DNA of 38,742 nt from a virus, in the IMG/VR virus record IMGVR_UViG_3300036715_004470, positions 1-38,742 of that record. The stretch is one strand, 5' to 3'. The notes beneath the pieces are model-generated. The model searched no databases. It saw only the letters and a program-made list of their open reading frames with translations, and had not been told where the DNA came from. Below, piece by piece: positions 3,705 through 38,742 of this stretch. Numbering within the stretch: position 1 is the first letter of the stretch; each line of letters starts with the position of its first letter. The translations under genes were made by a program, and so were the position numbers.

Positions 3705-4886
3705 TTAAATAGCGATATTCGGGGTGGTTGCGCCTATGACTTCCGTTCCCGCTTCTGGCATGGTGTACCCTATGCGATTGTACACTTCGTTTTTCGGTAG
3801 TGGTACGCCCGCCGCTAATACCTCGCGGATTACCTGTGCTTCTGACAGCACGTCATTTTCTTCGTGCCAGTTAAACGCAAACCTGTACGGAGCTTCCAAT
3901 GCGTTAATGTCGTAGTTAAGTTGGAAATCGTAGGTAAGAAGTTGCTCGTTTATGACGCTTTCCACGCGCTGCATATCTTCGTACATAATATCCGCGCTTA
4001 TCATTTTAAGCACTTGCAAAGCAGCACGAGAGCCTGTCTTCCCTAGTTCGGCGGTGTTTGCTTGTCCCAGCACGGCAATAGCTGTGTTCGCGTTCAATCT
4101 ATCAATCAAATCGTTATACGCGGCGTGACCGCCTTTGCTCACAGCCTCTATCAATTCAATGATAATACTGTCGTCAGTAGCGGCGTAATCGTTTACGCCT
4201 ACGTTTTTGATAGCATCTAAGGTCGTTTGTTTGTTGATTTCGTCTGTGGCTTCCTTCCATGTTCCCCGTAAAATCCCCTTCAAACGCTTGTTAAACTCTG
4301 CATAGCCTTTGTACTGCATATCTAGCAATACTTGTTGACGCATAAGCCCGCGCAACGTTCCGCCTACATTCCCGTCCGAATACGTGTCAATGATGTATTT
4401 TTGCGGCATGTCAAGCGGTGTGCGTACTTTTTCAGGTTCAAGGTTTACTTTCGCTATCTCAATCCCCGTTTGTGGCTGTTCTATCTGCACAGGCAAAAGC
4501 CGTGTGATTTTCGTCGGTACACTGCCCTGTGGTAGCTTCTCCCACGTCATTTCTAGCACCATAGCGCCGAAAAGCGGGGAATCAGTGTGATTGCTAACAA
4601 TACGCGCTATGGTTTTACGCAAGCGTGTTTTTGCATCAATAGCACGTTGTTCATCGGTGGCTTCATACGGCACAATGTCCCACGAAAACGAGGAAAGCGC
4701 TGTACGGCGTGTCAGTATGTGACCTCTCAGACGCGGGTTTGCTTCCACAAGCCTCATAAGGATAGCCATAAGCTCGCGTGTATCGCGGGTGTTCGGGTCG
4801 TCTATTTCCACTTTCTGTTCTGCTTTTTTGCATTGCTCAAAAGACGGGTAGAGGTTTTCTTTTAGGAATGACGGTAGATATGGCAT
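3705..4886 (-). CDS. Portal protein, Mu gp29-like (DUF935 type)
   Basis: The portal is the dodecameric ring at the capsid vertex through which DNA enters and leaves. This 393-residue protein shows the Mu gp29/DUF935 hallmark near its start: VEANPRLRGHILTRRTAL followed by FSWDIVPYEA (about residues 48-78). A later block (AIAVLGQANTAELGKTGSRAALQVLK) resembles the conserved nucleotide-like patch seen late in these portals. It is shorter than typical Mu-like portals of about 500 residues. It follows the large terminase by two bases, the usual terminase-portal order. No fused minor head domain is present; a gpF-like protein is encoded separately at 26815-27426. Confidence 0.78.
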   Translation of the reverse strand: MPYLPSFLKENLYPSFEQCKKAEQKVEIDDPNTRDTRELMAILMRLVEANPRLRGHILTRRTALSSFSWDIVPYEATDEQRAIDAKTRLRKTIARIVSNHTDSPLFGAMVLEMTWEKLPQGSVPTKITRLLPVQIEQPQTGIEIAKVNLEPEKVRTPLDMPQKYIIDTYSDGNVGGTLRGLMRQQVLLDMQYKGYAEFNKRLKGILRGTWKEATDEINKQTTLDAIKNVGVNDYAATDDSIIIELIEAVSKGGHAAYNDLIDRLNANTAIAVLGQANTAELGKTGSRAALQVLKMISADIMYEDMQRVESVINEQLLTYDFQLNYDINALEAPYRFAFNWHEENDVLSEAQVIREVLAAGVPLPKNEVYNRIGYTMPEAGTEVIGATTPNIAI

Positions 4887-4888
4887 AA

Positions 4889-6166
4889 TTACCAGTTGAT
4901 AGTGCCTAGTTCTGGCATTGTTGGAATAGTGTTTGTATAAGAGCGTTTTGCTAGAGAGCGTTCATGCAGAAACTCAAAAGAGCAAATAAGCGCGTCGGGT
5001 GCGTCGTCTGGCATTTTCGCTTTTTTGCCCGAAAAACTGAATACTTGCGCTGCAAAACGTTCACCTTCGACTGTACTTCTGAAATTGCGAGGGAATAGTA
5101 TTGCGTTGTCTGCATACGCTAACTGTGTGTTTTTTGCGAGGTCATCAACGCGATAGCGCTTGTATTCCACAACGGGGAATGGGACTTGATGAAGCCTACA
5201 CCAGTTACGCACGTTATTTGTCCACTGCGATTCCTGCGTAACGTTGCCGTCGAATCCGACAGCACGTACTTTCGCGTCTTTCATTTTCAAAACCGATTGC
5301 AAAAGGTCGTTGCTATCAGAGAAAGAGCGGCAAACCACATCTGCGATATAGAATTTACCTGTTGACGGTGAAAAGAGCAGTTTCACGATTGCCGTACTGT
5401 CACCTTGCCCGCGCTTGGATAAGTTCGGGTCGCAATAGATTACGCCCCTACAATCTTCGGGCAAAACGTCGTACTCTTGGTAATGCTCACGTCTGAATAT
5501 GAATCCCTCTACTGGTTCGCCCCATTCGCCCATAGCGTAAACGGCGTAGTATTCGGGATTTTTGTCTCTGAGTGATTCCAGAACACGCACGTAGTCAGCA
5601 TCTATAAACCGATTGTCTTTGTACGTTGTGCGCTTGACTGTGCAGGATTCAGGCGGTAAATCCACGAAACGACGCTTTAACCAGTGTTCTTTCGATATAG
5701 GGTTAAACGTCAGCATCACTTGTTTGTACGCGGGCGTTTCGCCCCTCATCCGCAAATCAAGTTGGTCAAAGTCGGCTTCCTTTACCTCGCTTGCCTCTTC
5801 AATCCACATCCAACCAATGCCAGAGATAGATTTCACGCGCTCTACATCATCAAGACCGACGCTCAATATCTCAGAACCGCTAGGTATGCACCGGATAGAC
5901 AAATCCGACTTATTGAACGTGAAATGCTCTTGCAAGCCCAAATCCGATATAACCACACGCAATAGGTGGAACGTGCTGTTTCGTATGCTGTTGAACGTTT
6001 GACGAATGACTAACCCGCGCTGCTTTTCTTCCGTGAGCGTCCGCAAAATGGCTTTCTGTGCAGCCATGACACTTTTGCCGCTACCAGCGCCGCCATACGC
6101 TACTAAGTAGCGATCTTGGTTCGTAAAGAGCGGTTTGCACCACGCATTAGCTCTCAGATTCGCCAT
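4889..6166 (-). CDS. terL: Terminase large subunit
   Basis: This is the packaging motor and headful or cos nuclease. Numbered from ATG 6166 (425 residues), the Walker A is GGAGSGKS at 25-32. A Walker B-like WMWIEEASEV carries acidic residues at 123-124. The C-terminal RNase H-like nuclease has D246 in IYCDPN, D306 in VGFDGN and D391 in DAPDAL. This is the PBSX/Terminase_3-type layout. A TTG two codons upstream (6172) is possible but less likely. The gene overlaps the end of the small subunit gene by 20 bases, implying coupled translation. Confidence 0.93.
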   Translation of the reverse strand: MANLRANAWCKPLFTNQDRYLVAYGGAGSGKSVMAAQKAILRTLTEEKQRGLVIRQTFNSIRNSTFHLLRVVISDLGLQEHFTFNKSDLSIRCIPSGSEILSVGLDDVERVKSISGIGWMWIEEASEVKEADFDQLDLRMRGETPAYKQVMLTFNPISKEHWLKRRFVDLPPESCTVKRTTYKDNRFIDADYVRVLESLRDKNPEYYAVYAMGEWGEPVEGFIFRREHYQEYDVLPEDCRGVIYCDPNLSKRGQGDSTAIVKLLFSPSTGKFYIADVVCRSFSDSNDLLQSVLKMKDAKVRAVGFDGNVTQESQWTNNVRNWCRLHQVPFPVVEYKRYRVDDLAKNTQLAYADNAILFPRNFRSTVEGERFAAQVFSFSGKKAKMPDDAPDALICSFEFLHERSLAKRSYTNTIPTMPELGTINW

Positions 6167-6539
6167 AGTCAATCACTATTTTGATGGTGTTATCGTTCTT
6201 GTTCGTGTTCTCGCTTTCGATTTTCTCTACATAGCCACGTTTCTTGCCTTTGGTGGATAGGTAGTATTTGATAGCGTTAAAGTCAGGTGGCTTGGTATAA
6301 ATGAAAACGTTGTCACCTGTTTCGCGCTCTACCGTTACGCCGTTTATCAGTTCGTGTAGTTTGCTCTCTGCGTTATCCAAGAGAGATTCGTACAGGTCTT
6401 CGATAGCCTCTGCAAACTCTGTGTTCTCTAACCAACGATAATAAGCCATTCGGGAAACTCGCACAGCCTCGCAAGCGGCTGTAATGTTGCCATGCTTGCG
6501 CCTTAAAGCGTCTAAAAAATGCGTGTGCTTATCTTCCAT
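6147..6539 (-). CDS. terS: Terminase small subunit
   Basis: The 130-residue protein has an N-terminal helix-turn-helix (HGNITAACEAVRVSRMAYYRWLEN, split here as HGNITAACEAV and VSRMAYYRWL, about residues 16-39). An acidic helical region follows (EFAEAIEDLYESLLDNAESKL), then a conserved block ending PDFNAIKYYLSTKGKKRGY. This matches small terminases that recognise phage DNA and recruit the large subunit. Its position directly upstream of and overlapping terL supports this. The C-terminus is Asn/Lys rich and probably flexible. Confidence 0.85.
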   Translation of the reverse strand: MEDKHTHFLDALRRKHGNITAACEAVRVSRMAYYRWLENTEFAEAIEDLYESLLDNAESKLHELINGVTVERETGDNVFIYTKPPDFNAIKYYLSTKGKKRGYVEKIESENTNKNDNTIKIVIDYGESES

Positions 6540-7522: not shown

Positions 7523-8110
7523 ATGACACTCAAGGAATGGCTCAAAAGCCTCTACCCTGACAAGACGGCTGAAATAGACTTGCTGTCAGACGGCACAGAG
7601 AAGCCGCCGCAACCAGCGCCCGTGCAATCGCAGGGAATTGACATATCCGCTCTTGTGCATAACAGAAGCGCCCTTGAAACACTTGTGCAGGCGCAAGAAA
7701 AGCAAGCGCAACAAATAGCGCAACTCACGGCGCAACTCGCGGAAAAAGACAAGGCAGTGACCGCCTACGAAGCCGAAAGAGCAGCAACACAAGCCGCAAT
7801 CGAAAGACAGCAACAAGAGACGCGCAAAGCGGAAATCGCTAAAATTATAGCTGACGCGCAGGCGGACGGTCGCATAGAAGCGAAGAACGAAGAGAAAGCG
7901 AATCTCTATCGCTCACTTTTGGAAGCAAACTTCGAGACGGGGAAACTTGTCGTTGACGGGCTTCCGAAGAGCGCAGCATATAAACCAGAACAGAAGCCAA
8001 CAGAAAGCACAAAAACAACTACATCACAAGGCGTAGCGGGGGTTACACCTATTGAACAAGCGCGAGAGAGCAGTTTATCTGAAATCCGCGCAGCATTGCA
8101 GTTCAATTAG
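7523..8110 (+). CDS. Capsid scaffolding protein
   Basis: The 195-residue protein directly precedes the major capsid gene. After a short N-terminal segment and a Pro-rich linker it forms a long Gln/Ala/Glu-rich coiled coil (about residues 50-115, QAQEKQAQQIAQLTAQLAEK and on). The C-terminal part (RIEAKNEEKANLYRSLLEAN then FETGKLVVDGLP) resembles the end of Mu-like protease/scaffold proteins. No serine protease motif is visible, so it seems to be the scaffold alone. It would guide capsid assembly and be lost on maturation. It is the first gene of the rightward late operon. Confidence 0.7.
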   Translation: MTLKEWLKSLYPDKTAEIDLLSDGTEKPPQPAPVQSQGIDISALVHNRSALETLVQAQEKQAQQIAQLTAQLAEKDKAVTAYEAERAATQAAIERQQQETRKAEIAKIIADAQADGRIEAKNEEKANLYRSLLEANFETGKLVVDGLPKSAAYKPEQKPTESTKTTTSQGVAGVTPIEQARESSLSEIRAALQFN

Positions 8111-8131
8111 TTCCACTAAACCCTTTATACC

Positions 8132-9172
8132 ATGCCTTTACTATCTGCATTTTCGGGAACGTTCTTCGGTTCTTCTACCGATACGTCAATGCGCGCGGTC
8201 GTGTTGAACAACATGATTTCTGCCGCTCCCATGCTCAGTTATGCACGCTTCTTTGCACACGCAGGGAACGCCATACAGCTTATCCAAGCAACGTCAAACA
8301 ATATCACTAATCTTGCTATTCGTGATATTAACACAGAGCCAAGCGCCGTGCAACCGCCGCCGCCGAATTACATCACGACTGGCTTGCGCATTTTCCATGC
8401 GAAAATTCAGTCCGATATTGCCTACGAATTTCAAAATCCGGGAAATCTCGCTGCGTATCACCAGCGCAATCTTGAAACGTATGCACAGGCAATGGGACGC
8501 AATTTCACAGACCGATTTATCAATGACGACCCAGCAGCTTTACCAGCAGATGCGCGCCGTTGGACTGGCTTAAAACGCCTTACCGCACTCACTACCCCTT
8601 CCCCTGAATTGGCGCTTGCGGGTGGTTCTGGTACTCGTACCGTGCCGTTTGGTGGTGCGAATGGTTCTGCATTGCCAAATGACGATTCAAGCGCTTCTAA
8701 AAAAATTGTCCGTCAGTTCCTCGAATTGGCAGACCAAGTAGATAGCGCAACCGTTTCAAGTGGCGGTGGCACGAAGGTAGTGTTTATGAATGAAGCTCTT
8801 GCTTATCGCTTGGCTTCTCTTGGATTGCCGTATTTGCAGCTTTCCAACACACTCGACTTGCTTAGTCAGCCTTTGCAAATCGGTACGTGGAAAGGTTATC
8901 CGGTTATCCGCACGGGCAAAACGCACGACCTTGCATCTGACGTTATACCTACAAACGAGACCGTAGGCACATCAACGGATTGTACTTCGATGTACTTCGC
9001 CACGTTCAACGAGGAAGCGGACTTGACATTCAACACCAACGTTGGCGTTTACGTTGACGGTGTGAAAGTGAAAGACAATTTCCTTACGACACGTGTAGAA
9101 TTGCAAGCGGGACTTTCCCTTGCCAATCCACAATCAATTTCACGTATCTCTGGCATCCGCCTTTACGCATAA
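8132..9172 (+). CDS. Major capsid protein
   Basis: This 346-residue protein follows the scaffold by 21 bases and is in the size range of HK97-fold capsid proteins. It has a long helical stretch (AYEFQNPGNLAAYHQRNLET, residues ~96-115) compatible with a spine helix. It also has KKIVRQFLELADQVDSATVS, then VVFMNEALAYRLASLGLP, the typical 'place a unit, look up its index' pattern of HK97-type A domains. The end NFLTTRVELQAGLSL is the usual strand of the P domain. Its stop overlaps the next start (TAATG). Family is assigned by pattern and position, not by a database hit. Confidence 0.75.
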   Translation: MPLLSAFSGTFFGSSTDTSMRAVVLNNMISAAPMLSYARFFAHAGNAIQLIQATSNNITNLAIRDINTEPSAVQPPPPNYITTGLRIFHAKIQSDIAYEFQNPGNLAAYHQRNLETYAQAMGRNFTDRFINDDPAALPADARRWTGLKRLTALTTPSPELALAGGSGTRTVPFGGANGSALPNDDSSASKKIVRQFLELADQVDSATVSSGGGTKVVFMNEALAYRLASLGLPYLQLSNTLDLLSQPLQIGTWKGYPVIRTGKTHDLASDVIPTNETVGTSTDCTSMYFATFNEEADLTFNTNVGVYVDGVKVKDNFLTTRVELQAGLSLANPQSISRISGIRLYA

Positions 9173-9747
9173 TGATTGACTACCCACGTTTACAGCTTGC
9201 CGCACGGCTTGTACCTATTTCCGAATTGGCAATAGGTTATCTGAATGTGAATCGGACATTGTTAGAGCCTAATATCTTAGGTACTAACGCAGACCCATAC
9301 ACACTTGACACTGCATCAGTTATGACGGCACTTGCAGCGATTGGCGCGCCCTCAACGGTAGTGGTAGCGTTTGAATTGTTCTTGGACGTTCTGGCTTATC
9401 GTTACACGGTCTTGGAAACGGTAGGGCTTCCCGTAGGCGTTGACCCCGCAGTTCTTGATGCGCTTGTAACGGCAAAAGTAGCGGTAGCAACGGCAACGAA
9501 ACTGGATAAGTCTGTCTATGACAAGAACAATGACGGCAAAGTAGATATTGAAAATCAAAACGATGCTTCTTTCTTGTTCTCTACTCCGGCGCTTCAATGG
9601 GTGCAACCGCATACATACGGGCGCATCCCTGACGTGACATTATTGGACGGCGCAGGCAACCAGATACAAGCGGACGTAAGAGCGACAACTACCAGCGTAA
9701 TAGTAGATTTCGGAGCGCCAACGGCGGGACAAATCATTCTTCGGTAA
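9172..9747 (+). CDS. Putative virion protein with EF-hand-like loop and fibre-type C-terminal domain
   Basis: The 191-residue protein is coupled to the capsid gene by a one-base overlap. Residues 117-128 (DKNNDGKVDIEN) form a calcium-binding loop of EF-hand/dockerin type, though position 12 is Asn instead of Glu or Asp. The last 50 residues (WVQPHTYGRIPDVTLLDGAG and on) resemble the small beta domain found at the ends of phage fibre and head-decoration proteins, with the W-x-H-x-x-G-R-x-P-x-V pattern. A head fibre or neck role is inferred from its place next to the capsid gene. Confidence 0.5.
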   Translation: MIDYPRLQLAARLVPISELAIGYLNVNRTLLEPNILGTNADPYTLDTASVMTALAAIGAPSTVVVAFELFLDVLAYRYTVLETVGLPVGVDPAVLDALVTAKVAVATATKLDKSVYDKNNDGKVDIENQNDASFLFSTPALQWVQPHTYGRIPDVTLLDGAGNQIQADVRATTTSVIVDFGAPTAGQIILR

Positions 9748-25414: not shown

Positions 25415-25866
25415 TGACTGACACAACCATATACACCGTAACCCTCGAAAAGTCCGATAATTGGGCGTTTTCGGCGGGACTGGAAAGCATTACGTTTAAT
25501 TGCCTCGCTATGCCTCGCAAGCCAGTAGTGGAGAATCTGGTACGGTACAACAAAGGCGGCGGACGCAACAAATGGACTGACGAATTTCACTTGGAAGTGT
25601 ATCCGTTTTCTACCCTGTTTTCCGACACGGCGCAACATAGCGGAGATTTGGACGCGCTTATAGATTTCCTATGCGAAGATAAACCCATGCGCATAAAAGA
25701 AAGTACGCTCCCTCGCTACGAAGCGGGGAACGATTACGAGATACCGACACGACGGGCGTTTGTGGAAAATTGCCCTGTGTGGGTAAAAGGCTTTGAAGGC
25801 GGCGACGTGCAAAAGGAAGATGCAGAAGAGACGTGCAATCTGGTACTGGAAAAGGTTTTGTTATGA
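25414..25866 (+). CDS. Minor tail protein downstream of the tape measure
   Basis: The 150-residue protein starts on the last base of the tape measure stop and ends overlapping the next gene, so it belongs to the tail operon. It contains TVTLEKSDNWAFSAGLESIT, a basic loop (MPRKPVVENLVRYNKGGGRN), and a W/F-rich C-terminal half (VENCPVWVKGFEGGDVQKED). The ending suggests a beta fold in which the protein packs against the tail tip or hub. The position after the tape measure corresponds to the distal tail region of siphophages. I do not recognise a named family. Confidence 0.55.
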   Translation: MTDTTIYTVTLEKSDNWAFSAGLESITFNCLAMPRKPVVENLVRYNKGGGRNKWTDEFHLEVYPFSTLFSDTAQHSGDLDALIDFLCEDKPMRIKESTLPRYEAGNDYEIPTRRAFVENCPVWVKGFEGGDVQKEDAEETCNLVLEKVLL

Positions 25867-26393
25867 AGCTAAAAATCTCACAAGATGCGCTACTCCGATT
25901 TGGCTATCGCGCTATTCAACTTATCCAAGAGCGCACGGCAAAAGGTGACGGCTTAGACGGCAAATTTGCGTCATACAGCACAAACCCGCTTGCCGTGCCG
26001 TCTGGTATGGCATCGAAGCGGGCGCGAAAGGCGTTACAAGGTGCGGGGAAATTGAGCTACTTCAAACGCAAGGGCAAATTGTGGATGGTCGTACAAGGCG
26101 GCTATGCTGAATTGAAACGCGCTGTTTTTACCAATGCCAAAGGGAACACGGGCGTACCGAATCTCATGGTCACGGGGCAAATGATGGGTTCGCTACAAGC
26201 GAAAGTAGCGGGCGAAAATAGCGTCGTACTCACATTCGATAACCCAGAAGCGGCGCGTAAGGCGTTTTACCACCATGTTTCGGGTGCGGGAAAACGCCGT
26301 GTGTTGCGCCGCTTCTTAGGGTTGCGAGAAGAGGAATTGAAAGACCAAAGGCTTATTCAGACTATTACGGACGGGGCGAATCTTGAGATTTGA
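25863..26393 (+). CDS. Tail completion protein, gpG/gpS-like
   Basis: This 176-residue protein resembles the 'phage virion morphogenesis' family (Mu gpG, P2 gpS), which finishes the head-proximal tail end. Seen are the N-terminal helix (DALLRFGYRAIQLIQER), the GDGLDGKFASYS block, and the loop with NLMVTGQMMGSLQAKV. The distinctive end RVLRRFLGLREEELKDQRL matches the family's R-x-F-L-G-L motif. ATG 25863 overlaps the previous stop. It is the last rightward late gene and runs 29 bases past the end of the convergent early operon, with no terminator between them. Confidence 0.65.
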   Translation: MKLKISQDALLRFGYRAIQLIQERTAKGDGLDGKFASYSTNPLAVPSGMASKRARKALQGAGKLSYFKRKGKLWMVVQGGYAELKRAVFTNAKGNTGVPNLMVTGQMMGSLQAKVAGENSVVLTFDNPEAARKAFYHHVSGAGKRRVLRRFLGLREEELKDQRLIQTITDGANLEI

Positions 26394-26787
26394 AGTTGAG
26401 TTCTCCGTCACAAAGACGTTCACCTACATAGTTCCCATATTCGTCTAATTTTTGAACGTAGATACCGCTAAACTGCTTATCTTGCAAAACCTTTTGCAGC
26501 CTATCAATCGCGGGTTGCGCAAGATTTTCCCAGCCTACATAGGCTTTACCACCTTCGCAAAAATCATCTGAACCGGAACACCAGATTAGCGCCCGTAAAG
26601 CATCGTTTGCCGCTCCTAACAGTTCACGGTTTACTTCTGTTTTGTTGATTACTGGTTCTGGTGCGGGGAAACGTTCTTTGTATGCTTGTAGGCATTTATC
26701 CGCGATTTCCGTCGCGGTCTTGCTTGGGCAATTCTCACAGGCTATGGCGGCGTACCATGCCTTTAGCCATATCTCTTGTTCTGTCAT
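26365..26787 (-). CDS. Conserved-type phage hypothetical protein
   Basis: A 140-residue protein, the last gene of the leftward early operon. It opens TEQEIWLKAWYAAIACENC, continues TEIADKCLQAYKERFPAPE (about residues 27-45), and has a second half with ALRALIWCSGSDDFCEGGKA. The 'MTxxEIWxxAxxAA ... AD ... L..F..RF' opening recurs in many unrelated phages but has no known function. ATG 26787 is chosen because GGAG lies six bases upstream; an in-frame TTG at 26799 is spaced too poorly. Its last 29 bases overlap the convergent tail gene. Confidence 0.65.
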   Translation of the reverse strand: MTEQEIWLKAWYAAIACENCPSKTATEIADKCLQAYKERFPAPEPVINKTEVNRELLGAANDALRALIWCSGSDDFCEGGKAYVGWENLAQPAIDRLQKVLQDKQFSGIYVQKLDEYGNYVGERLCDGELNFKSQDSPRP

Positions 26788-26814
26788 ATCATTCTCCAAA
26801 AAAGTTGTAAAAAA

Positions 26815-27426
26815 TTATTCCACGACTGGCAACCACGAATGACGGCAACGAAACCCGCCTGCATAGTACAAAACTTCCAAGCCTTGTCCGTTGTCCATCC
26901 GCCGTATTTCCTCAATCGTGTAAATGTTGTTCAAATGTTCTACGCAAAAGTCTCTTTCGGCGGGCGCTCCGAAGTATTTCAACCGCTTCACGCCCGCTCT
27001 CTCTGCCTTGTTGATACGGTTTGCCCTCGAAAGCGCGGTGCGACTGGTGAGAGCGATTGTGTCTGCAACGTAGCGTAACCGACCATAGCGTAATTGCAGC
27101 CTGTCGGAAATCTCCTTAATGCTCTTGTCTTGCCTCAGAAGCCGCACAACGTCTTGCGATACGTCTTTCATTACACCGCGAACCGTCTTTGCAAAGTCCG
27201 CCGCGCCTTGCTTGGCTATCGTGTCGAAAACGTCCGCTTCCGGCTGCGTTGTGTTGTCCGTAACAAAACTATCCGCGCTTGAAATCAAACCAGAGGCATA
27301 GTCTCGAATTACGCCGGAACGACTTATTAGACTATCCAATTCGGACGGTATCTTTTCGGGCGTGTTCGCTGCTATATTGCGTTCTACGATTGCGTCCACA
27401 GCGTCCAAAAATGCGGCGATACTCAT
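26815..27426 (-). CDS. Mu gpF-like minor head (head morphogenesis) protein
   Basis: Minor head proteins of the SPP1 gp7/Mu gpF group associate with the portal and can enter the cell with the DNA. The N-terminal ~130 residues are helical. The C-terminal part has the characteristic gpF pattern: a GAPAERDFCVEHL start, then TIEEIRRMDNGQG and AGGFRCRHSWLPV at the end. The gene overlaps the preceding zinc-ribbon gene by ATGA. Its place is odd: it lies in the early operon, about 22 kb from the portal gene, which is next to it in most relatives. Confidence 0.8.
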   Translation of the reverse strand: MSIAAFLDAVDAIVERNIAANTPEKIPSELDSLISRSGVIRDYASGLISSADSFVTDNTTQPEADVFDTIAKQGAADFAKTVRGVMKDVSQDVVRLLRQDKSIKEISDRLQLRYGRLRYVADTIALTSRTALSRANRINKAERAGVKRLKYFGAPAERDFCVEHLNNIYTIEEIRRMDNGQGLEVLYYAGGFRCRHSWLPVVE

Positions 27427-27599
27427 TCTGCACCTCTGTCAACGGTTAAGATGCTCTTTTGCGAAGTCGGTACAATGCGCTCTATCGTGATGTACCGAAA
27501 AGCGCACGTCAGACACTCGCAATACCGTTTAATCGTGTTCCAACGCTGCCGTGTGTGTGTGACGCGGCGCTGTGTATCTCCACATTTTGGACATTCCAT
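27423..27599 (-). CDS. NrdR-like zinc-ribbon miniprotein
   Basis: The 58-residue frame starts MECPKCGDTQRRVTH and continues KRYCECLTCAFRYITIERI. The C-x2-C and C-x-C-x2-C pairs with FRYITIERI strongly resemble the N-terminal zinc ribbon of the ribonucleotide reductase repressor NrdR (CPxCG ... CxxCxxRFTTxE). The ATP-cone that follows in NrdR is absent. Its stop overlaps the next start (ATGA). It lies in the early operon after a small membrane protein. It could bind nucleic acid or compete with host NrdR; the function is inferred from similarity alone. Confidence 0.7.
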   Translation of the reverse strand: MECPKCGDTQRRVTHTRQRWNTIKRYCECLTCAFRYITIERIVPTSQKSILTVDRGAE

Positions 27600-27602
27600 A
27601 GT

Positions 27603-27809
27603 TCAACCTTGAATGATGAAAATTGTAGTTAGAAAGGCAATGCAAAAAATCACGAAGCCTTTCCAGAACGGATAATTGCTATCTTCCCACGCATTGTAGG
27701 CGAAGAAAAACAGCATTACGCAAACAAACCAACGCTTATCGTGCATGACGGTAGCGACTAAGAGCGCTACGCAGGCGGTGTAGATGGAGAGGGGCAAAGG
27801 GGATTTCAT
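27603..27809 (-). CDS. Small two- to three-span membrane protein
   Basis: A 68-residue hydrophobic protein with segments at about 5-20 (LPLSIYTACVALLVATV), 26-40 (RWFVCVMLFFFAYNA) and 50-66 (GFVIFCIAFLTTIFII), separated by short charged loops. Its ATG overlaps the stop of the nuclease gene (ATGA) and its stop lies 3 bases before the zinc-ribbon start, so it is firmly within the early operon. Early phage membrane proteins often alter host membrane functions or block superinfection, but nothing here specifies which. Confidence 0.65.
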   Translation of the reverse strand: MKSPLPLSIYTACVALLVATVMHDKRWFVCVMLFFFAYNAWEDSNYPFWKGFVIFCIAFLTTIFIIQG

Positions 27810-28090
27810 TTCAAGCCCTCGTTAAGCAGAGCCAAAGCCTCGTCAACGCTCCGAATGATTGTAATTTGCCCGCGCCACTTCTCATGCCAAGCGGTCTCGT
27901 CAGGCGTTAATTTTTGTGCTGACGGCGGTTTTGCGCCGTCTTTGATTTCTACCAGAAAGTTCCTTCTGCGATAGCCTACAACCAAGTCAGGGAAGCCTTT
28001 GCCAAGACCGCTCGTTATCGCTACGGTAGCGCCACATTTGCGGAACGCGCTCACGATTGCGGTTTGGTTTGCGTCGGTGCGTTTTGGCAT
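27806..28090 (-). CDS. VRR-NUC family nuclease
   Basis: The 94-residue protein is a stand-alone VRR-NUC domain of the PD-(D/E)xK superfamily, found in phages as structure-specific nucleases that process branched DNA. The motifs are GKGFPDLVVGY with P34-D35, then VEIKDG with E48 and K50, and KPPSAQKLTPDE with Q59. The C-terminal helix (EWHEKWRG-like, TAWHEKWRGQITIIRS) closes the fold. Length is normal for the domain alone. It is coupled to its neighbours by TAATG and ATGA overlaps and sits just downstream of the replication genes. Confidence 0.85.
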   Translation of the reverse strand: MPKRTDANQTAIVSAFRKCGATVAITSGLGKGFPDLVVGYRRRNFLVEIKDGAKPPSAQKLTPDETAWHEKWRGQITIIRSVDEALALLNEGLK

Positions 28091-28950
28091 TATACGCCCT
28101 CCGTTTCCTTGATTTGCACAGCCAGATTGACAACCATCTGCCCGTACATCGCGTCCAATTCATCACGCTCACGTCGCAATCGGTCGTTTTCCCGTGCCAT
28201 GCGCTGTAACTTTTCCTCCAACTCTACCACTCGTTTTTCGCTCTTTGCCCACAGCGAGGCAAAATTTGTTTCCTCGTTTGGTTGTAGAACGTCGGTTTTT
28301 GCCGCGCCGTTTTCGCTAGGTTGCGTTTTTGGCAGTGATTCGATATTCTGCCAAGCCCCACGAAAAAAAACGCGATGTAAACCTTCTATTGCGGTTTCGT
28401 CTTCGGGGATGTAGCGCCACAATGTTTTTTCGCCCACTTGGTACGCTTCCATCCTGCTTTGTGCCGTAGCGTCTTTTTTCTGCTCTTGTGCCGCCCAAAC
28501 GTGCGAGTGCAGTTCGGGCGGTGTTTTGCCATTCAAAAAGTCCGCTATTGTCCATCGGTCAAATGATTGCCGCTTCAAAAACGTATGCACTTGTGCCGTG
28601 AAATCGCTCTCAGTCCATCCGTCAGATTTGAGCGTTTCCCAGAGTGCAAGCGCTTTTGCGCGGTTCTCTGTCGGATTGCCTTGCGCGTCTTTCGCTGTGT
28701 AGTCAACGCCGTAGTTTGCGCCAATTTTTGCCATAGCCGCCGCAAACGTTTCAGGGCGCAAGCGAAGCGCGGGAATCAGTGCAACCACAGCCACGGGCTG
28801 CATAGGTCGGATTTCAAGTGAGCGAAGCGGCGAAATCTCTTGCGTTTTCAACCAGTGTTGTAACGCTTCGTTGTCCGTTGTGCTGTCGCTGTTGGTACGC
28901 AGTGAGATTTTGTCCATTAGCGCCGCCCCCGTTTGTGCTAGTGTTTGCAT
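28090..28950 (-). CDS. Putative replication accessory protein (helicase-loader-like?)
   Basis: The 286-residue protein follows the initiator gene. The central helical part at about 60-150 includes PETFAAAMAKIGANYG, RAKALALWETLKSDGWTESD, and FTAQVHTFLKRQSFDRWTIA. This has the style of small helicase-loader proteins such as G39P, with a 'count, step, then ...F..a..fl' pattern. A linker precedes a C-terminal coiled coil (~235-275). The start is uncertain: ATG 28950 overlaps the initiator gene by 137 bases, ATG 28917 by 104, and ATG 28803 not at all; none has a strong ribosome site. The function is a guess from position and pattern. Confidence 0.55.
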   Translation of the reverse strand: MQTLAQTGAALMDKISLRTNSDSTTDNEALQHWLKTQEISPLRSLEIRPMQPVAVVALIPALRLRPETFAAAMAKIGANYGVDYTAKDAQGNPTENRAKALALWETLKSDGWTESDFTAQVHTFLKRQSFDRWTIADFLNGKTPPELHSHVWAAQEQKKDATAQSRMEAYQVGEKTLWRYIPEDETAIEGLHRVFFRGAWQNIESLPKTQPSENGAAKTDVLQPNEETNFASLWAKSEKRVVELEEKLQRMARENDRLRRERDELDAMYGQMVVNLAVQIKETEGV

Positions 28951-29680
28951 CGTGTTCCGCTTTCATCTTATTCAAAAAAACGTCGTAGTATTTTGTGCCT
29001 GTTTTGTCTTTGTGCCGGAGCTTGGTTGCACTGAGGAAATTCGATTTCCAGAATGAATCCTGACGCGCCCATAGCACAACCGCTTTAATTTCCGCTTTTT
29101 CGCGCTTGTCAATCGTTACCAGTTCGTCGTAGGTTTTCGCCCACGCTCGTAAATCGCTGTCGGTCGTGTCGCGGTCTGGTGGTAGTAATCCACGAAACCA
29201 GTCTGCAAATTTTTGTGCGCTCTCAGAAAGTTCAATCTCTTTCCGCGAAACGGTACGTTTCGTGGGAGATGCGTTAGCATCTTCTTTATGTTTACGTTTA
29301 TGTTTATGTTTTATAGTGTCACCACTAAACGTATCACTATACGTGTCAGAGAACGTATCACTAAACGTATCACTATACGTGTCAATTTTTGCTACGTTTA
29401 ACGTGTACGAAGTAGAGTTTTCTATGCCTCTACCGCCCTTCGGATTGCTCTTGAAATCAATAAGTCCGCGCTGTTTTAGTAAATTCTTTGCCTTCCTTAC
29501 CGTGTTCACTGACATATCTACATCAAATGCAATATATCTGTCGGAATGTCGTATCGGGAACGTCCAATGTGAGCGGTTACAGGTATCTAATAAATAGAAA
29601 TACAGAGTAATAGCCGACGATGTAAAACGGTTCTCACGGTGACATTGCCAGAAGCGGTTAATAAGGTGGATGTAATTCAT
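28814..29680 (-). CDS. Replication initiator, winged-helix type (DnaD/lambda-O-like)
   Basis: The 288-residue protein has an N-terminal winged helix-turn-helix domain: SAITLYFYLLDTCNRSHWT, then the recognition region SVNTVRKAKNLLKQRGLIDF near 57-76. A repetitive hinge follows at 100-119 (DTYS/DTFS tetrapeptides), then a His/Lys-rich stretch (124-132). A helical C-terminal domain runs over ~140-245 (AQKFADWFRGLLPPDRDT and on). As in lambda O, the DNA coding the hinge carries iterons, so the gene probably contains the origin it acts on. It overlaps the upstream gene by ATGA. Confidence 0.8.
   Translation of the reverse strand: MNYIHLINRFWQCHRENRFTSSAITLYFYLLDTCNRSHWTFPIRHSDRYIAFDVDMSVNTVRKAKNLLKQRGLIDFKSNPKGGRGIENSTSYTLNVAKIDTYSDTFSDTFSDTYSDTFSGDTIKHKHKRKHKEDANASPTKRTVSRKEIELSESAQKFADWFRGLLPPDRDTTDSDLRAWAKTYDELVTIDKREKAEIKAVVLWARQDSFWKSNFLSATKLRHKDKTGTKYYDVFLNKMKAEHDANTSTNGGGANGQNLTAYQQRQHNGQRSVTTLVENARDFAASLT
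29285..29384. other. Candidate phage replication origin: five 12-bp iterons plus AT-rich block
   Basis: ACGT(A/G)TCA occurs at 29329, 29341, 29353, 29365 and 29377, exactly 12 bases apart. A degenerate further unit lies near 29316. Next to them, 29285-29313 is an A/T-rich run of TTTATG or TTTACG six-base units, suited to be the melting element. The array is inside the initiator gene and codes its DT(Y/F)S and HKHK stretches. This matches the layout of lambda's ori within gene O. Confidence 0.75.
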
Positions 29681-29931
29681 GCCTTTACCTTCTTATTCTC
29701 CCCAATCCAGACAAGACCAAACAACTCTAATGCAGCCATTTGTGTCATTACGCCTGAAGTGGGGTATTTGTTGTATTCAGTATTCATGCGGCTTTCAAGG
29801 CTTTTGCGGTGCGGTAATGTGTGAGGGTCTTTGTCTATCTTTTTGGCGTAAAAACTCATTTCTGTTTCAATTACCAGCACCGCGAAAACCTCACCAGTCA
29901 CGTGTGATATGACTTTGTACTCGTTCATCAT
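29677..29931 (-). CDS. Hypothetical early protein upstream of the initiator
   Basis: An 84-residue protein coupled by ATGA overlaps to the zinc-ribbon gene upstream and the initiator gene downstream. Its N-terminal part is strand-like (EYKVISHVTGEVFAVLVIE). A charged middle (KKIDKDPHTLPHRKSLESRM) and a helical end (MAALELFGLVWIGENKKV) follow. Two ATGs in a row (29931, 29928) could serve as start; the first is used here. I do not recognise the family. Its place directly before the initiator suggests a regulatory or accessory role in replication. Confidence 0.6.
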   Translation of the reverse strand: MMNEYKVISHVTGEVFAVLVIETEMSFYAKKIDKDPHTLPHRKSLESRMNTEYNKYPTSGVMTQMAALELFGLVWIGENKKVKA

Positions 29932-30200
29932 ATTATCTGAAATTCAGCGCCCAAATACGGCGTTGGTGTCGGATAATTGTAGCGCTCCGTTACAGGTCGT
30001 AAGTGCTGTGCTGTAATAGCCTCGCTTTCAAGACGTTTCACGAGTTTGTATCTATCCGCTTCGCTGCGAATATCTTTTGCATTGCAAGCGTGAACGTTGC
30101 GCAAGTAGCTTGCGCGGTTTCGGCAATGTCCACAGCAATAGAGCGCCCTGTGTCCGGCTGTTCGTGGTAGCGGTTTGCTACATTGTTTGCAGTTTCTCAT
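29928..30200 (-). CDS. Small zinc-ribbon protein
   Basis: The 90-residue protein begins RNCKQCSKPLPRTAGHRAL and continues YCCGHCRNRASYLRN. The CxxC and CCxxC groups (residues 4-7 and about 22-26) form a typical zinc ribbon, followed by a helical tail (IRSEADRYKLVKRLESEA). Comparable proteins occur in many phages next to replication or recombination genes. The gene overlaps its neighbours on both sides by ATGA. It may bind nucleic acid; no specific partner can be named. Confidence 0.65.
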   Translation of the reverse strand: MRNCKQCSKPLPRTAGHRALYCCGHCRNRASYLRNVHACNAKDIRSEADRYKLVKRLESEAITAQHLRPVTERYNYPTPTPYLGAEFQII

Positions 30201-30376
30201 TTCGTCACCTCAAATAAATTCATTGTCGGAGCTAGTTTGTAATCCTTAATCGCTTTATCCACTTCACGCTCTAAGCGCTTGGCGGTCTCTAAGGCGTTTG
30301 CATGACGCTCACCGAAGAAATCCTTTTGCGCTTGCCGCATCCTTTCGACAAGCGCGTAAAACTCAAATTCTGTCAT
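30197..30376 (-). CDS. Small helical hypothetical protein
   Basis: A 59-residue frame starting MTEFEFYALVERMRQAQKDF, then ERHANALETAKRLEREVDKA, with strong heptad-like spacing, so the protein is probably one or two long helices. GAGG lies seven bases before the ATG. Its stop overlaps the next start (ATGA), and it begins 9 bases after the exonuclease stop. These spacings make it very likely real despite its length. The function is unknown; an association with the recombination genes upstream is suggested only by position. Confidence 0.7.
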   Translation of the reverse strand: MTEFEFYALVERMRQAQKDFFGERHANALETAKRLEREVDKAIKDYKLAPTMNLFEVTK

Positions 30377-30385
30377 GGCTTGACC

Positions 30386-31288
30386 TCACTTCAAAAGAAA
30401 GCGACGTGAGCCGCTTTTCGGTTTCTGAAATTGCGCCCACAATTCGGGGTGCTGTGATTTGAACGAATCCGCGTCAAAAGCAAGGCTGTCTTTCGCGGCT
30501 TTCCACGTTACAAGCGCCTCGCCGTCAAAGGTGAGCGCTTCGTTATCGCGCAAAAGCAATTTCAGCGACGTTTGCAAATCCTCTTTTTTCTCTTCCAATT
30601 CTTTCATCTTTTGCTGCACACCTTGTAAGGCATAATACACAGCCAAAGCCTCCTCTGTTGCTTCAATGGCTTTCCCCGTCGTGTGTTTCGGGAAAGCAAG
30701 TACAACATCGTCAGCAGTGGTGAGCTTTGGCGGCGTTCCCCCCAGAACGTTGTCCCGCCAAAACGCGCTTGCAAACTCTACCATCATGGAAATTACCTCG
30801 TCGTCTCGCTCGTATTCTTGCCAGTGAAAATCAATACCGCGTTCTAGCCATGCCACAGCGCACCCCTCTAAATTCAGCACATTGCAATAGTGTTGCGCCT
30901 GTATGAACCACATAGGCTCTGGCTGGTCGAGATGCTTCTGTGTCGTTTTACATTCTAGCACCGTTACGCCGCCGCTTGAGTTTCTTGACATCCAATCAGG
31001 CATAGCAGTTAAAAAATCGTGTTCGGGATGCACATATAACGGCGCGTGTGGCTGCCAGACTTCGCGGTCGGTGTCTTCTGCGTAGTATTCCGCTACAATG
31101 CGTTCAAGTTTTTTCCCTGCTCTCATATATTTTGTTTGTTTGCGAACGATGTTTTGCGTTATCTCGCGCCAAACTTGATAAGGCGAGGAATAAGGATTCA
31201 GACCCATTATTGTAGCTATTGTTGTCCCGCCAACCTTGCGCTGTGCATAGACTTCGGCGGGAATGATAAGTTCTTGTGTGTCAGTCAT
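30386..31288 (-). CDS. YqaJ-like recombination exonuclease
   Basis: This 5'-3' double-strand exonuclease would pair with RecT for phage homologous recombination. In the 300-residue protein the PD-(D/E)xK core shows E62 (KKLERIVAEYY), D98 (TAMPDW), and E112/K114 in VLECKTTQ. The Q-rich motif IQAQHYCNVLNLEGCAVAWL follows at about 129-148, as in YqaJ and lambda Exo. The C-terminal third is a coiled-coil region (VQQKMKELEEKKEDLQTSLK) ending in a basic tail. It lies two bases after recT. Length is normal for the family. Confidence 0.88.
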   Translation of the reverse strand: MTDTQELIIPAEVYAQRKVGGTTIATIMGLNPYSSPYQVWREITQNIVRKQTKYMRAGKKLERIVAEYYAEDTDREVWQPHAPLYVHPEHDFLTAMPDWMSRNSSGGVTVLECKTTQKHLDQPEPMWFIQAQHYCNVLNLEGCAVAWLERGIDFHWQEYERDDEVISMMVEFASAFWRDNVLGGTPPKLTTADDVVLAFPKHTTGKAIEATEEALAVYYALQGVQQKMKELEEKKEDLQTSLKLLLRDNEALTFDGEALVTWKAAKDSLAFDADSFKSQHPELWAQFQKPKSGSRRFLLK

Positions 31289-31290
31289 GG

Positions 31291-32214
31291 TTATTTCTTT
31301 CCTTTCGGTTGTTCAAACATAGGGTTTGCAATTTCTGGTTCTGTGGATTCGGGTTCATGCATTGGTGCGGGTTCAGGCTCTTGTGGCGTATCAATAATTT
31401 CCGCCTCTTCGACTTCATTCAGTTCGCCGCTTTGGTCGGTCGCAAAATGTTCGGGTTTGATAATACCGCCGTCGGTACTTGCGGCTTGTTCCAACTTGTC
31501 AATAGAAACGGGCAAATACGGCACTAAGCGACGGATAGCGGTCTTTTTTGCCATAGCCTCATAGTCTGTCTTCCATGCTCCCGAAAGCCCGTTACGCTGC
31601 GATTGTGAGCGACGGCGGTATTTCTCCACTTCGTTGAGAGACAGCACGACAAAATTGTAACCGCCGCTTTTGTAATGCACAACGGCGTAAACGTAGGAAA
31701 CAAGCGCTTCGCTACTTGCTTTGGGCTTGTGTGTCAATTTCGGGTGCAACCCAAGTTCATAATCAAAGTCATCACCTTCGCGCACTACTTCGGCGTACAC
31801 CGTGAGAATTTCCCCGCTTTGACGTGCCAGAGAAAGATAGCCTTTGTATCCTATCTGGAATTGAATTTCCATTTTCCCCGCTTGGTTGTTGCGGTATGGC
31901 ACAAAATAACATTCGCCAAGCGCGGCAACGGGCTTAAAGCCAAGTATTGATGCTTGCATAACAGCGCCCGCCAAACTTTCAACGCTGCACTCTGCTATGG
32001 CAGGATTGCGAGTGATTAACGTCGTTGCCATTTGGATAATTCTATCCGCTGTCAGGTGTTTGGGTAGCGCTTGTGCGATTTGCGGGCGTAATTGCTGCAA
32101 TATCGTACCTACATCGTTAGAGCGTAACCCTGCCATTGTACCACCGTTTGCGCGGGTTTTTTGCATGGCTGTTTTGACTGTATCAGCCAATTTCGTATTT
32201 TGCATTTCACTCAT
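31291..32214 (-). CDS. recT: RecT single-strand annealing protein
   Basis: RecT anneals complementary single strands, here with the adjacent YqaJ exonuclease. The 307-residue protein has ITRNPAIAECSVESLAGAVM, ASILGFKPVAALGECYFVPY, and IQFQIGYKGYLSLARQSG, all hallmark RecT blocks, and then FVVLSLNEVEKYRRRSQS and WKTDYEAMAKKTAIRRL. The C-terminal ~70 residues are acidic and flexible. ATG 32214 is used because an in-frame upstream ATG at 32262 lies in a hairpin. No clear ribosome site is visible, as for several genes here. Confidence 0.92.
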   Translation of the reverse strand: MSEMQNTKLADTVKTAMQKTRANGGTMAGLRSNDVGTILQQLRPQIAQALPKHLTADRIIQMATTLITRNPAIAECSVESLAGAVMQASILGFKPVAALGECYFVPYRNNQAGKMEIQFQIGYKGYLSLARQSGEILTVYAEVVREGDDFDYELGLHPKLTHKPKASSEALVSYVYAVVHYKSGGYNFVVLSLNEVEKYRRRSQSQRNGLSGAWKTDYEAMAKKTAIRRLVPYLPVSIDKLEQAASTDGGIIKPEHFATDQSGELNEVEEAEIIDTPQEPEPAPMHEPESTEPEIANPMFEQPKGKK

Positions 32215-32243
32215 TTTCGTACACAAATAATGTTTGATAAAGC

Positions 32244-32273
32244 GGGGCTTGGCTACTACCAAGCCCCTTTTGT
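32244..32273 (+). terminator. Perfect hairpin upstream of recT
   Basis: GGGGCTTGG (32244-32252) and CCAAGCCCC (32259-32267) form a 9-bp stem with a six-base loop. On the plus strand it is followed by ttttgttgtttta, so it would stop rightward or antisense transcripts. On the minus strand (the operon direction) only a weak tail, gctttat, follows, so it may instead act as a processing or attenuation element in the early message. Confidence 0.55.
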
Positions 32274-32277
32274 TGTT

Positions 32278-32565
32278 TTAGTATTCCAGATATGCCAGTG
32301 CGTACAGTTCTTGCACGTCGGATTCGATCTTGGTTGTGCCGTCAGCGTCAAATATCCAATCTCCCAAGCGCAAGCCTACAACCTCAATAATAATACTCTT
32401 CACGTCGTGTGCCTCTTCGCGGGTTTTGCGGTAGGGCGGGGAAACGTGTATGTCAACGTCGTATAAACATTCTCTGCGTTCAACGGGCGTAACCTCTGCA
32501 CTGCCATATATGCCACAATCGAATGTTGCGCCTGTTATCCAAAGATTCGGGATGTAGATTCGCAT
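32278..32565 (-). CDS. Hypothetical early protein
   Basis: A 95-residue protein of mixed strand-like and charged segments: MRIYIPNLWITGATFDCGIY, then ECLYDVDIHVSPPYRK and KSIIIEVVGLRLGDWIFDAD. The last part (TKIESDVQELYALAYLEY) is helical. The pattern suggests a compact alpha/beta fold, but no family is recognised. It begins one base after the stop of a 56-residue gene and ends 11 bases before the hairpin that precedes recT. A role with the recombination genes is possible by position only. Confidence 0.6.
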   Translation of the reverse strand: MRIYIPNLWITGATFDCGIYGSAEVTPVERRECLYDVDIHVSPPYRKTREEAHDVKSIIIEVVGLRLGDWIFDADGTTKIESDVQELYALAYLEY

Positions 32566-32566
32566 A

Positions 32567-32737
32567 TCACACCGCTTTCAATTCTTTTTGGGCGCGGATT
32601 AACTCACTGTGATTCTGAATCAAATCAGCAATTTTTTCATCCGTAACACCAGCAAGCATCATACTTGCGAGTATGCTGTTCTGCGCTTGTTTGCAGGTAT
32701 TTAGCAACCTTTCGAGTAATTCTGTTTTCTCAATCAT
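32567..32737 (-). CDS. Small helical hypothetical protein
   Basis: A 56-residue frame starting [20 protein letters not shown], then [18 protein letters not shown], ending RAQKELKAV. The whole protein looks like three short amphipathic helices. Its ATG overlaps the stop of the pentapeptide repeat gene (ATGA), with a GAGGTGAT ribosome site just upstream inside that gene. Its stop is one base from the next start. This spacing strongly supports it as a gene, although the function is unknown. Confidence 0.7.
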
Positions 32738-33423
32738 TTCATCACCTCGTTTGGTTCAGTTTGCTGTGATAGTAATTGCTTCTCTAGCGCCCGCAAATAC
32801 TCAATTTGCACGGCGTAGTTTTGCTTTTCGTTATCGCCGTAATCTTCTTTTGCTTTCGCTGCAAATTCCTCTAGCGTACCCCAAAAGCACCCCGCTTGGA
32901 TAATTAGCCCTGTATCGTGCCAAACTGCAATGCACGTGCGCCCGCTTGGTTTGTTGAAGAGGAAAACATCTTTGGCTCTCGAAAGGTAGGCTCCCGAAAG
33001 GTCGGCTCCCGAAAGGTCGGCTCCCGAAAGGTCGGCTTCCGAAAGGTCGGCTCTCGAAAGGTCGGCTATCGAAAGGTAGGCTCCCGAAAGGTAGGCTCCC
33101 GAAAGGTCGGCTCCCGAAAGGTCGGCTCCCGAAAGGTAGGCTCTCGAAAGGTTGGCTCCCGAAAGGTCGGCTCCCGAAAGGTTGGCTCCCGAAAGGTCGG
33201 CTCCCGAAAGGTCGGCTCTCGAAAGGTAGGCTCTCGAAAGGTAGGCTCTCGAAAGGTAGGCTCCCGAAAGGTCGGCTCCCGAAAGGTCGGCTCCCGAAAG
33301 GTCGGCTCCCGAAAGGTAGGCTCCCGAAAGGTTGGCTCCCGAAAGGTCGGCTCCCGAAAGGTTGGCTTCGGCAAATTGGCGCTTGCCCTCTGCGTATTGC
33401 TGTAATAATTCTGTTTTTGTCAT
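32734..33423 (-). CDS. Pentapeptide repeat protein
   Basis: This 229-residue protein has 26 uninterrupted pentapeptides A(D/N/Y)LS(G/R), residues 20-149, which fold as a right-handed square beta-helix. A short N-terminal helix ([19 protein letters not shown]) precedes them, and a C-terminal alpha/beta domain follows (~150-229: [20 protein letters not shown] and on). Some helix proteins of this kind mimic DNA and inhibit gyrase, but many have no known function. The DNA is a near-perfect 15-bp tandem array. It lies in the early operon and is coupled to the next gene by ATGA. Confidence 0.88.
32977..33366 (-). repeat. 26-unit 15-bp tandem repeat
   Basis: The unit (minus strand) is close to GACCTTTCGGGAGCC. 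Almost all differences fall on the first base of the second codon (GAC, AAC or TAC) and on the fifth codon (GGA or AGA). The array spans 390 bases and encodes the pentapeptides. Homogeneity this high implies recent expansion or conversion, and the repeat number probably changes easily. Confidence 0.92.
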
Positions 33424-37677: not shown

Positions 37678-38742
37678 GTGCCACGTACAAGAACTATCCC
37701 CGGTTCAATCTACGCCCAAAGCGGGCGCAACAAACTCATTATCAAATATAACGGGCGCGTTCACCACACAGGCTTAGAAGATACCAAAGAGGGGCGTAAA
37801 CTAGCACAGCAGATGTTAGAGCGCCTCTATCTGCAAAGTAAAGGCATAGACAAAAAGGAAAGCCACGACGTAACGACCTACGACGTGGCTTTTGCTCAAT
37901 TTCTCACGATATTTTGCGCTCAAAAAAGCAAGAAAACGAAAGAAGCGTATTTATTCGCATACAAGGCAATCGCTCAGGAAGATAAGCCGCTCACGGCTGC
38001 AAACGCAGAGAAAGACGTACTGGCATATTTGGCAAGCGCCGAACAACGCAAACACAACCAAGTAACGCGGAACAATTATCTACGGCACTTCCAAACGTTT
38101 CTTACGTGGTCACACAAACGCGGATGGATAGAGCACACGGAATTTGCAAAGCAGTACAGGAAAGCCGAAAACACCGAAGTACGGAACTACACCGAAAGCG
38201 AGTGCGCTGCGATAGTGGAGTATTGCCGTAAGAGCGAGAAAGCCCACATCCGCGAAATGGGCTTAATGATAGAGTTCATGTTAGAAACGGGTGCGCGTCC
38301 TGTGGACTGTCTCACGTTAGAATGGGCGCATATAAAGCCGGACCAAACAGTAGATTTTTCCAATAAAGTAGATAAAACCCTAGAGAATATTCCGCTTTCC
38401 GATGCGGCTTTTGCGGTATTAAAGCGAATAAATAGGACAGGACCGGAAGTTTGGCGTTGGAAGCATAGCACACTTTCACGTTTACGAAAATGGCTAAACG
38501 ATGTATTGAGCGCTTGCAACATACCAGCGCAAGGAAGGTCGTTTAAGGAGTTCCGTAAAACATTCCGCAACCGGTTACTTGATGCAGAAGTACAACCAGA
38601 AATTGCTATGCGCCTTATGCGACACGCTGACGTAAGAACAACGCTAAAGCACTACACGAAGTTTACGCACGAAAGTCTTAGAAAAGGATTGAAAAAAGTC
38701 GCTTTTGGTAGCGAGAAGGTAGCAGAGGCAAGTGAGGAATAG
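37678..38742 (+). CDS. int: Tyrosine recombinase (phage integrase)
   Basis: The 354-residue enzyme joins phage and host attachment sites. It has an N-terminal arm-binding part (~1-65), a core-binding SAM-like domain (~66-160), and the catalytic domain. The catalytic set is R207 (ETGARPVDCL), R293 in SFKEFRKTF, H316 in RLMRHADVR, and nucleophile Y326 in LKHYTKF. The usual His of HxxR is Lys290 here. It starts with GTG (37678), 3 bases after the previous stop. Its end holds a 12-base copy of the left arm repeat; the stop codon ends the window, and attR should lie just beyond. Confidence 0.93.
   Translation: MPRTRTIPGSIYAQSGRNKLIIKYNGRVHHTGLEDTKEGRKLAQQMLERLYLQSKGIDKKESHDVTTYDVAFAQFLTIFCAQKSKKTKEAYLFAYKAIAQEDKPLTAANAEKDVLAYLASAEQRKHNQVTRNNYLRHFQTFLTWSHKRGWIEHTEFAKQYRKAENTEVRNYTESECAAIVEYCRKSEKAHIREMGLMIEFMLETGARPVDCLTLEWAHIKPDQTVDFSNKVDKTLENIPLSDAAFAVLKRINRTGPEVWRWKHSTLSRLRKWLNDVLSACNIPAQGRSFKEFRKTFRNRLLDAEVQPEIAMRLMRHADVRTTLKHYTKFTHESLRKGLKKVAFGSEKVAEASEE

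What the first reader, a model, noticed from the sequence alone, without database searches (positions are those of the whole stretch)
26815..27426. Minor head protein displaced into the early operon
A clear gpF-like C-terminal domain sits about 22 kb away from the portal, on the early transcript beside recombination and nuclease genes. In most relatives it is adjacent to or fused with the portal. It may be made early, serve as an injected protein with a second function, or show recent rearrangement.
Basis: partly seen in the sequence, partly recalled or inferred. Interest (0 to 1): 0.6.

Follow-up and report, generated by a model that had tools for sequence, protein, structure and literature searches.

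The report
Minor head gene in early operon
The gene is this virus's only copy of a protein that normally sits inside phage heads beside the DNA entrance; here it lies at the end of the early genes, and it does so in an entire unstudied group of viruses, nearly always right behind the same small predicted zinc-binding protein.

Summary
ORF 26815-27426 (-) is a compact 203-aa MuF (gpF-like) protein and the only one detected in the phage. Pfam misses it, but profiles, a confident AlphaFold model and viral fold matches place it there. It lies 21.9 kb from the Mu-type portal, overlaps the gene upstream by 4 bp, and sits near the end of a gapless early operon with RecT and YqaJ.

"Recent displacement of MuF" does not hold. 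In all 22 other contigs with this portal lineage and a readable MuF, MuF is never in the usual place behind the portal: 20 have it on the opposite strand, convergent with the portal block, and 2 have it 6 kb on. The window keeps the convergent neighbour G; the terminase-portal block is what became separated, probably by one inversion.

New here: a conserved pair. Every relative with sequence upstream carries a homologous small zinc-ribbon gene before MuF, the only widely conserved early-operon neighbour found. The window's early module is otherwise unrelated to theirs. MuF divergence tracks portal and G better than capsid, so it probably still works with the portal. Some relatives carry toxin domains; this copy is bare. 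Best reading: an early-made, few-copy, portal-recruited pilot protein. The zinc-ribbon's role is untested.

The parts
26815..27426 (-). MuF (gpF-like) minor head/pilot protein, 203 aa, the phage's only MuF
   Evidence: conserved R158, C161, G190-G191, C194, R195, H196, W198
27423..27599 (-). Small zinc-ribbon protein (58 aa, NrdR-N/Ogr-like), 4-bp overlap with MuF; conserved partner gene
   Evidence: PF22811 1e-7 over cut-off; homologue directly upstream of MuF in 19 relatives and one gene further away in L178
26365..26799 (-). 144-aa ORF after MuF, last of the early operon; lies between MuF and G in the window
   Evidence: no homologue in the relatives; absent in L001, where MuF and G overlap tail to tail by 12 bp
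25833..26393 (+). G-like late gene (186 aa), convergent neighbour of MuF; in relatives it mostly follows the portal directly
   Evidence: hmmsearch 1.5e-46 with a profile from five relatives; synteny
3705..4886 (-). Mu-type portal protein (PF06074)
   Evidence: 9.8e-40; lineage profile A7
4889..6172 (-). Terminase large subunit (PF04466)
   Evidence: 1.8e-51
7523..8110 (+). Protease/scaffold-like head protein
   Evidence: Weak PF10123/PHROG matches; conserved in 12 relatives
8132..9172 (+). Major capsid protein, divergent from terminase-portal
   Evidence: phrog_212 4e-11; blastp homologue in 20 relatives
27603..33423 (-). Upstream early operon: small hydrophobic protein, nuclease-like ORF (no family match), DnaD-like loader, YqaJ, RecT, pentapeptide repeats; gaps of 15 bp or less

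Best explanation
ORF 26815-27426 is the phage's MuF minor head protein, of the kind that binds the portal inside the procapsid in a few copies and helps start infection. In this lineage the gene is the second member of a fixed pair, zinc-ribbon then MuF, near the 3' end of the early operon and convergent with a late operon. It is therefore transcribed from the early promoter and probably translationally coupled to the zinc-ribbon gene. The protein is made before or at the early-late switch, persists, and is drawn into procapsids by the portal once late proteins appear. A few copies per head suffice, so a strong late promoter is not needed. Shown: identity, sole copy, gene overlap, conserved pair, portal-correlated divergence. 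Inferred: early expression, presence in the virion, ejection with DNA. In the window an inversion of the [early operon - MuF - G] segment relative to terminase-portal probably explains the 22-kb distance.
For: Fold and homology. Single MuF. Operon continuity (4-bp overlap, no gap above 15 bp from 26365 to 33423). Position: in 22 other contigs MuF is 0.5-3.6 kb past the portal on the opposite strand (20), or 6.2-6.7 kb past it on the same strand (2; in L178 it lies downstream of the transposase gene), never in the canonical slot. Zinc-ribbon directly upstream in the window and 19 relatives, one gene further in L178; the next commonest neighbour family reaches 4 contigs. The window's early genes have no blastp homologue in the relatives except MuF, yet the pair persists (zinc-ribbon found among neighbours; early genes). 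Distance correlation MuF-portal r=0.70 and MuF-G 0.72, against MuF-MCP 0.38. Canonical relatives: portal directly upstream in at least 47 of 54. SPP1 gp7 is targeted by the portal to the procapsid in few copies, and only about 25% of virions lacking it are infectious (PMC6316719).
Against: No transcript or virion data. Promoter and terminator scans of the region find no more sites than shuffles do, so timing rests on gene layout. Homology to canonical Phage_Mu_F is remote. Distance correlations partly reflect shared ancestry (G and TerL correlate too).
Confidence: 0.66

Rival explanations
1. The MuF protein has been repurposed: it acts early inside the infected or lysogenic cell, with the zinc-ribbon protein as partner, and is no longer a virion part.
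For: Early operon, conserved pairing with a putative regulator; canonical slot behind the portal empty in the whole lineage.
Against: Divergence tracks portal and G (r 0.70-0.72); no other MuF in the phages; relatives carry toxin-like C-termini as MuF toxins thought to be delivered by virions do (PMC5576092).
Confidence: 0.15
2. The zinc-ribbon protein is an Ogr-like activator of late genes and MuF is coupled to it so that MuF appears exactly at the early-late switch (an addition to the best explanation rather than an alternative).
For: NrdR/Ogr-type zinc ribbon found in regulators; position near the end of the early operon; transposable prophages of Leptospira lack Mor/C, so some transposable phages need another activator (PMC8705779).
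Against: Ogr_Delta match is below cut-off and for one member only; no late-promoter motif was tested; a zinc ribbon may bind RNA, protein or DNA.
Confidence: 0.3
3. The convergent spot at the operon end is simply a cargo (moron) zone, kept for swapping MuF toxin tails and immunity genes.
For: 13 of 21 relatives have extended MuF; small ORFs often follow MuF; the 144-aa ORF sits here in the window and has no homologue in the relatives.
Against: Eight relatives and the window have bare MuF yet keep the same kind of place and the zinc-ribbon partner.
Confidence: 0.2
4. A recent one-off displacement of MuF, or a misassembled contig.
For: MuF is 22 kb from the portal only in the window's closest group.
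Against: A second metagenome contig, circular by a 163-bp end repeat, has the same MuF-G convergence; 22 divergent contigs have MuF out of the canonical slot.
Confidence: 0.03

Closest known systems
Phage Mu F (gp30) and D3112 minor head/DNA pilot protein
   Same: C-terminal motif and helical part align in register (weakly); Mu-type portal; single copy
   Different: There portal-F-G are consecutive late genes; here F is in the early operon, on the strand opposite to G, and is less than half as long
SPP1 gp7
   Same: MuF superfamily; presumed portal-bound minor capsid protein
   Different: gp7 belongs to the packaging/portal module just after the portal (PMC6316719); here it is early and paired with a zinc-ribbon gene
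MuF polymorphic toxins (PMC5576092)
   Same: MuF head domain; relatives in this lineage carry C-terminal CdiA_C, ADP-ribosyltransferase or HExxH-containing extensions
   Different: Window copy has no toxin domain; 85% of the published phage muf genes lie near portal or terminase genes, and two MuF domains were defined from that position
Pelagibacter phage HTVC112P gp30
   Same: Nearest match in an annotated phage; same GGxxCRH signature
   Different: Sits between portal and scaffold on the late strand
Ogr/Delta late activators and NrdR zinc ribbon
   Same: Domain class of the gene coupled to MuF
   Different: Function not tested; at 58 aa there is no room for NrdR's second domain

Membership tests
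MuF superfamily | Sequence/profile homology to Phage_Mu_F (PF04233) or relatives | tested here: inconclusive
   Window protein: no Pfam match; hhalign to Mu F probability 52%; lineage members match PF04233 at 1.4e-4 to 0.002, below cut-off
MuF superfamily | Fold of head morphogenesis/minor capsid proteins | tested here: met
   Model pLDDT 90.6; viral Foldseek probability 1.00 to head morphogenesis and minor capsid proteins. The PDB search gave only helical bundles
MuF superfamily | Gene immediately downstream of the portal gene | tested here: not met
   21.9 kb away in the window; never in that slot in 22 relatives. Position is a usual context, not a fold criterion, so this lowers only the claim of a canonical muf locus
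MuF superfamily | Portal-bound virion component in few copies | not testable with these tools
   Needs proteomics; indirect: distance correlation with portal r=0.70
MuF polymorphic toxin | C-terminal toxin domain after MuF | tested here: not met
   The window protein ends 7 residues after the GGFRCRH motif; 13 of 21 relatives do have extensions
Ogr/Delta or NrdR regulators (zinc-ribbon gene) | Zinc-ribbon domain over family cut-off | tested here: met
   PF22811 32.2 bits against 27.2; Ogr_Delta 18.2 bits, below its 26.3 cut-off
Ogr/Delta or NrdR regulators (zinc-ribbon gene) | Regulates transcription | not tested
   No expression data

The most novel reading that the evidence does not exclude
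A conserved early-operon pair couples a zinc-ribbon switch protein to the portal's pilot protein: the same event that turns on late genes supplies the MuF that is loaded into heads and ejected into the next host, where MuF (often with a toxin tail) acts first. This would be a separate, regulated way to load virion cargo, used by a phage lineage with no isolate found in the phage collection searched.
Probability: 0.2. Interest if true: 0.75.

Novelty: new variant of a known kind. Interest (0 to 1): 0.52.

Why it matters
MuF genes have been recognised largely by their place behind the portal, and two MuF domains were defined from that position (PMC5576092). Here is a phage lineage, with close relatives absent from 50,697 phage records by the queries tried, where that place is empty, MuF belongs to the early operon, and the library model misses the window's copy. 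It gives a natural case for asking when a portal-loaded protein must be made, and it offers an untested partner gene that may regulate late expression or head loading. It also widens the places to look for MuF-delivered toxins.

Tried and rejected
Second MuF near the portal: none in the window by PF04233 (which also misses the known copy) or by session profiles. The 636-aa ORF 1793-3703 in the slot behind the portal is not MuF (no family match, no GGxxCRH motif) and has no homologue in relatives. Solved structures: sequence search gave nothing relevant; Foldseek and VIA-align against PDB gave only helical bundles, mostly over residues 1-147. MuF in Salinibacter phage M8CC-19 (portal followed by a G-like gene): not detected, inconclusive. 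Scans of bacterial genomes with the window MuF and with the portal: no relatives. Promoter and terminator scan: numbers equal to shuffles. G structure: model pLDDT 77, no PDB match; G of this lineage aligns only faintly with Mu G (hhalign probability 7%), so the name 'G-like' rests on position and a weak match.

Full report
The observation. The ORF at 26815-27426 on the minus strand is 203 aa with an ATG start and stops seven residues after the signature GGFRCRH. Library searches are nearly blind to it: no Pfam family at E up to 1, two weak PHROG matches to head proteins that I read as MuF-bearing. The nearest annotated match is gp30 of Pelagibacter phage HTVC112P, a protein encoded between portal and scaffold. 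A scan of viral contigs with a three-sequence alignment gave 80 relatives; among those with a long ORF upstream, at least 47 of 54 have a portal protein there, the classical MuF place. hhalign aligns the window's lineage with F of Mu, D3112 and a Mannheimia phage over the helical part and the C-terminal motif, weakly. Lineage members L175, L180 and L186 match PF04233 directly, below its cut-off. An AlphaFold model from 30 sequences has pLDDT 90.6 and its named viral structural neighbours are mostly head morphogenesis and minor capsid proteins. I take the assignment as established, remote as it is.

Surroundings. The portal (PF06074) is at 3705-4886 and terminase at 4889-6172, both minus; protease/scaffold and capsid genes run the other way from 7523. 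MuF overlaps the 58-aa gene upstream by 4 bp. From 26365 to 33423 there are 15 minus-strand ORFs with no gap above 15 bp, among them YqaJ, RecT and a DnaD-like loader. No other ORF in the window matches the MuF profiles. The left flank carries tRNA-Ala and tRNA-Asp, and by eye the right-end ORF 37678-38742 reads as a tyrosine integrase, so this looks like a prophage. A second contig from another metagenome, circular by a 163-bp end repeat with one mismatch, carries the same MuF at 92% identity.

Relatives of the phage. Scans with portal alignments gave 22 other distinct contigs with the same portal lineage (28-37% identity to the window for the members aligned in A7) and a MuF. MuF is never in the slot behind the portal. 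In 20 it lies on the opposite strand, 0.5 to 3.6 kb past the portal and convergent with it; in L177 and L178 it lies on the same strand 6.2-6.7 kb on, and in L178 downstream of the transposase gene of that early block. A detectable transposase of the L009/L010 type is present in six. Between portal and MuF usually lies a gene of 165-198 aa (in L093, L186 and L188 it lies upstream of the portal instead). The window has a homologue of it at 25833-26393 (1.5e-46), not beside its portal but at the end of the tail operon, convergent with MuF. In the closest relative the two genes' ends overlap by 12 bp. In Mu the order is portal-F-G. So the window has kept G and MuF together and lost the junction between portal and G; a single inversion of the early-MuF-G segment in the circular map would do this. 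That step is inferred.

The partner gene. Comparing genes upstream of MuF across contigs gives one widely conserved family: a zinc-ribbon protein (MxCPxC...R...CxxC), directly upstream and mostly overlapping, in the window and 19 relatives, and one gene further away in L178; the next commonest family reaches 4 contigs. L174 and L176 end before it. Ten of 20 match the NrdR zinc-ribbon model. The window's early genes otherwise have no blastp homologue among the relatives except MuF (the short zinc-ribbon copy is missed there but found). The pair therefore outlived replacement of the rest of the early module.

Function. Pairwise distances of MuF follow portal (r 0.70) and G (0.72) more than capsid (0.38), as expected if MuF still meets the portal; shared ancestry explains part of it. 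In SPP1 the portal targets gp7 to the procapsid in few copies, and particles without it are about 25% infectious (PMC6316719). A protein needed in so few copies can be made from an early transcript. Thirteen of 21 relatives (L176 is cut within MuF and left out) have C-terminal extensions, with matches to CdiA_C (L182) and ADP-ribosyltransferase (L174), an HExxH motif in L094, and CdiA_C in one member of A3 that I take to be L010 from its sequence. These resemble MuF polymorphic toxins (PMC5576092). The window copy has none.

Verdict. Real, correctly read, and old rather than recent. The displaced MuF is a trait of a lineage whose close relatives were not found in the phage records with the queries tried (the window portal has only distant matches, the L182 portal and L183 MuF none). 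The zinc-ribbon-MuF pair appears undescribed in the papers that could be searched (one search, no hit), which is weak evidence of novelty. Expression timing, virion presence and the partner's role remain untested.

Noticed in passing
window 27423-27599 and relatives' zinc-ribbon genes (L177, L179, L180, L181, L184): Several zinc-ribbon proteins end in short hydrophobic tails after a Q (e.g. NQEEFIF, RQIELWQK) that recall sliding-clamp binding peptides (from memory, untested); the window copy lacks the tail.
   Followed up: no
window 1230-3703: Two minus-strand ORFs behind the portal (636 and 187 aa) have no family match and no homologue in the 22 relatives.
   Followed up: partly
window 32734-33423: Pentapeptide-repeat protein (229 aa) in the early operon, with long overlapping open frames on both strands caused by the repeat.
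   Followed up: no
L010 9701-10801, L182 11863-12942, L174 5664-6974, L094 13435-14907: MuF proteins of this lineage with toxin-like C-terminal extensions (CdiA_C, ADP-ribosyltransferase, HExxH), some followed by a small ORF that could be an immunity gene.
   Followed up: partly
L018, L036, L042 MuF ORFs: Other viral contigs' MuF proteins (portal directly upstream or near) carry long C-terminal extensions with HExxH-like motifs; three A3 members match PF07737.
   Followed up: no
L172 (NC_042349) 7537-9619: Salinibacter phage M8CC-19 has its portal followed by a G-like gene and no detectable MuF; its early operon is also convergent with the tail operon.
   Followed up: partly
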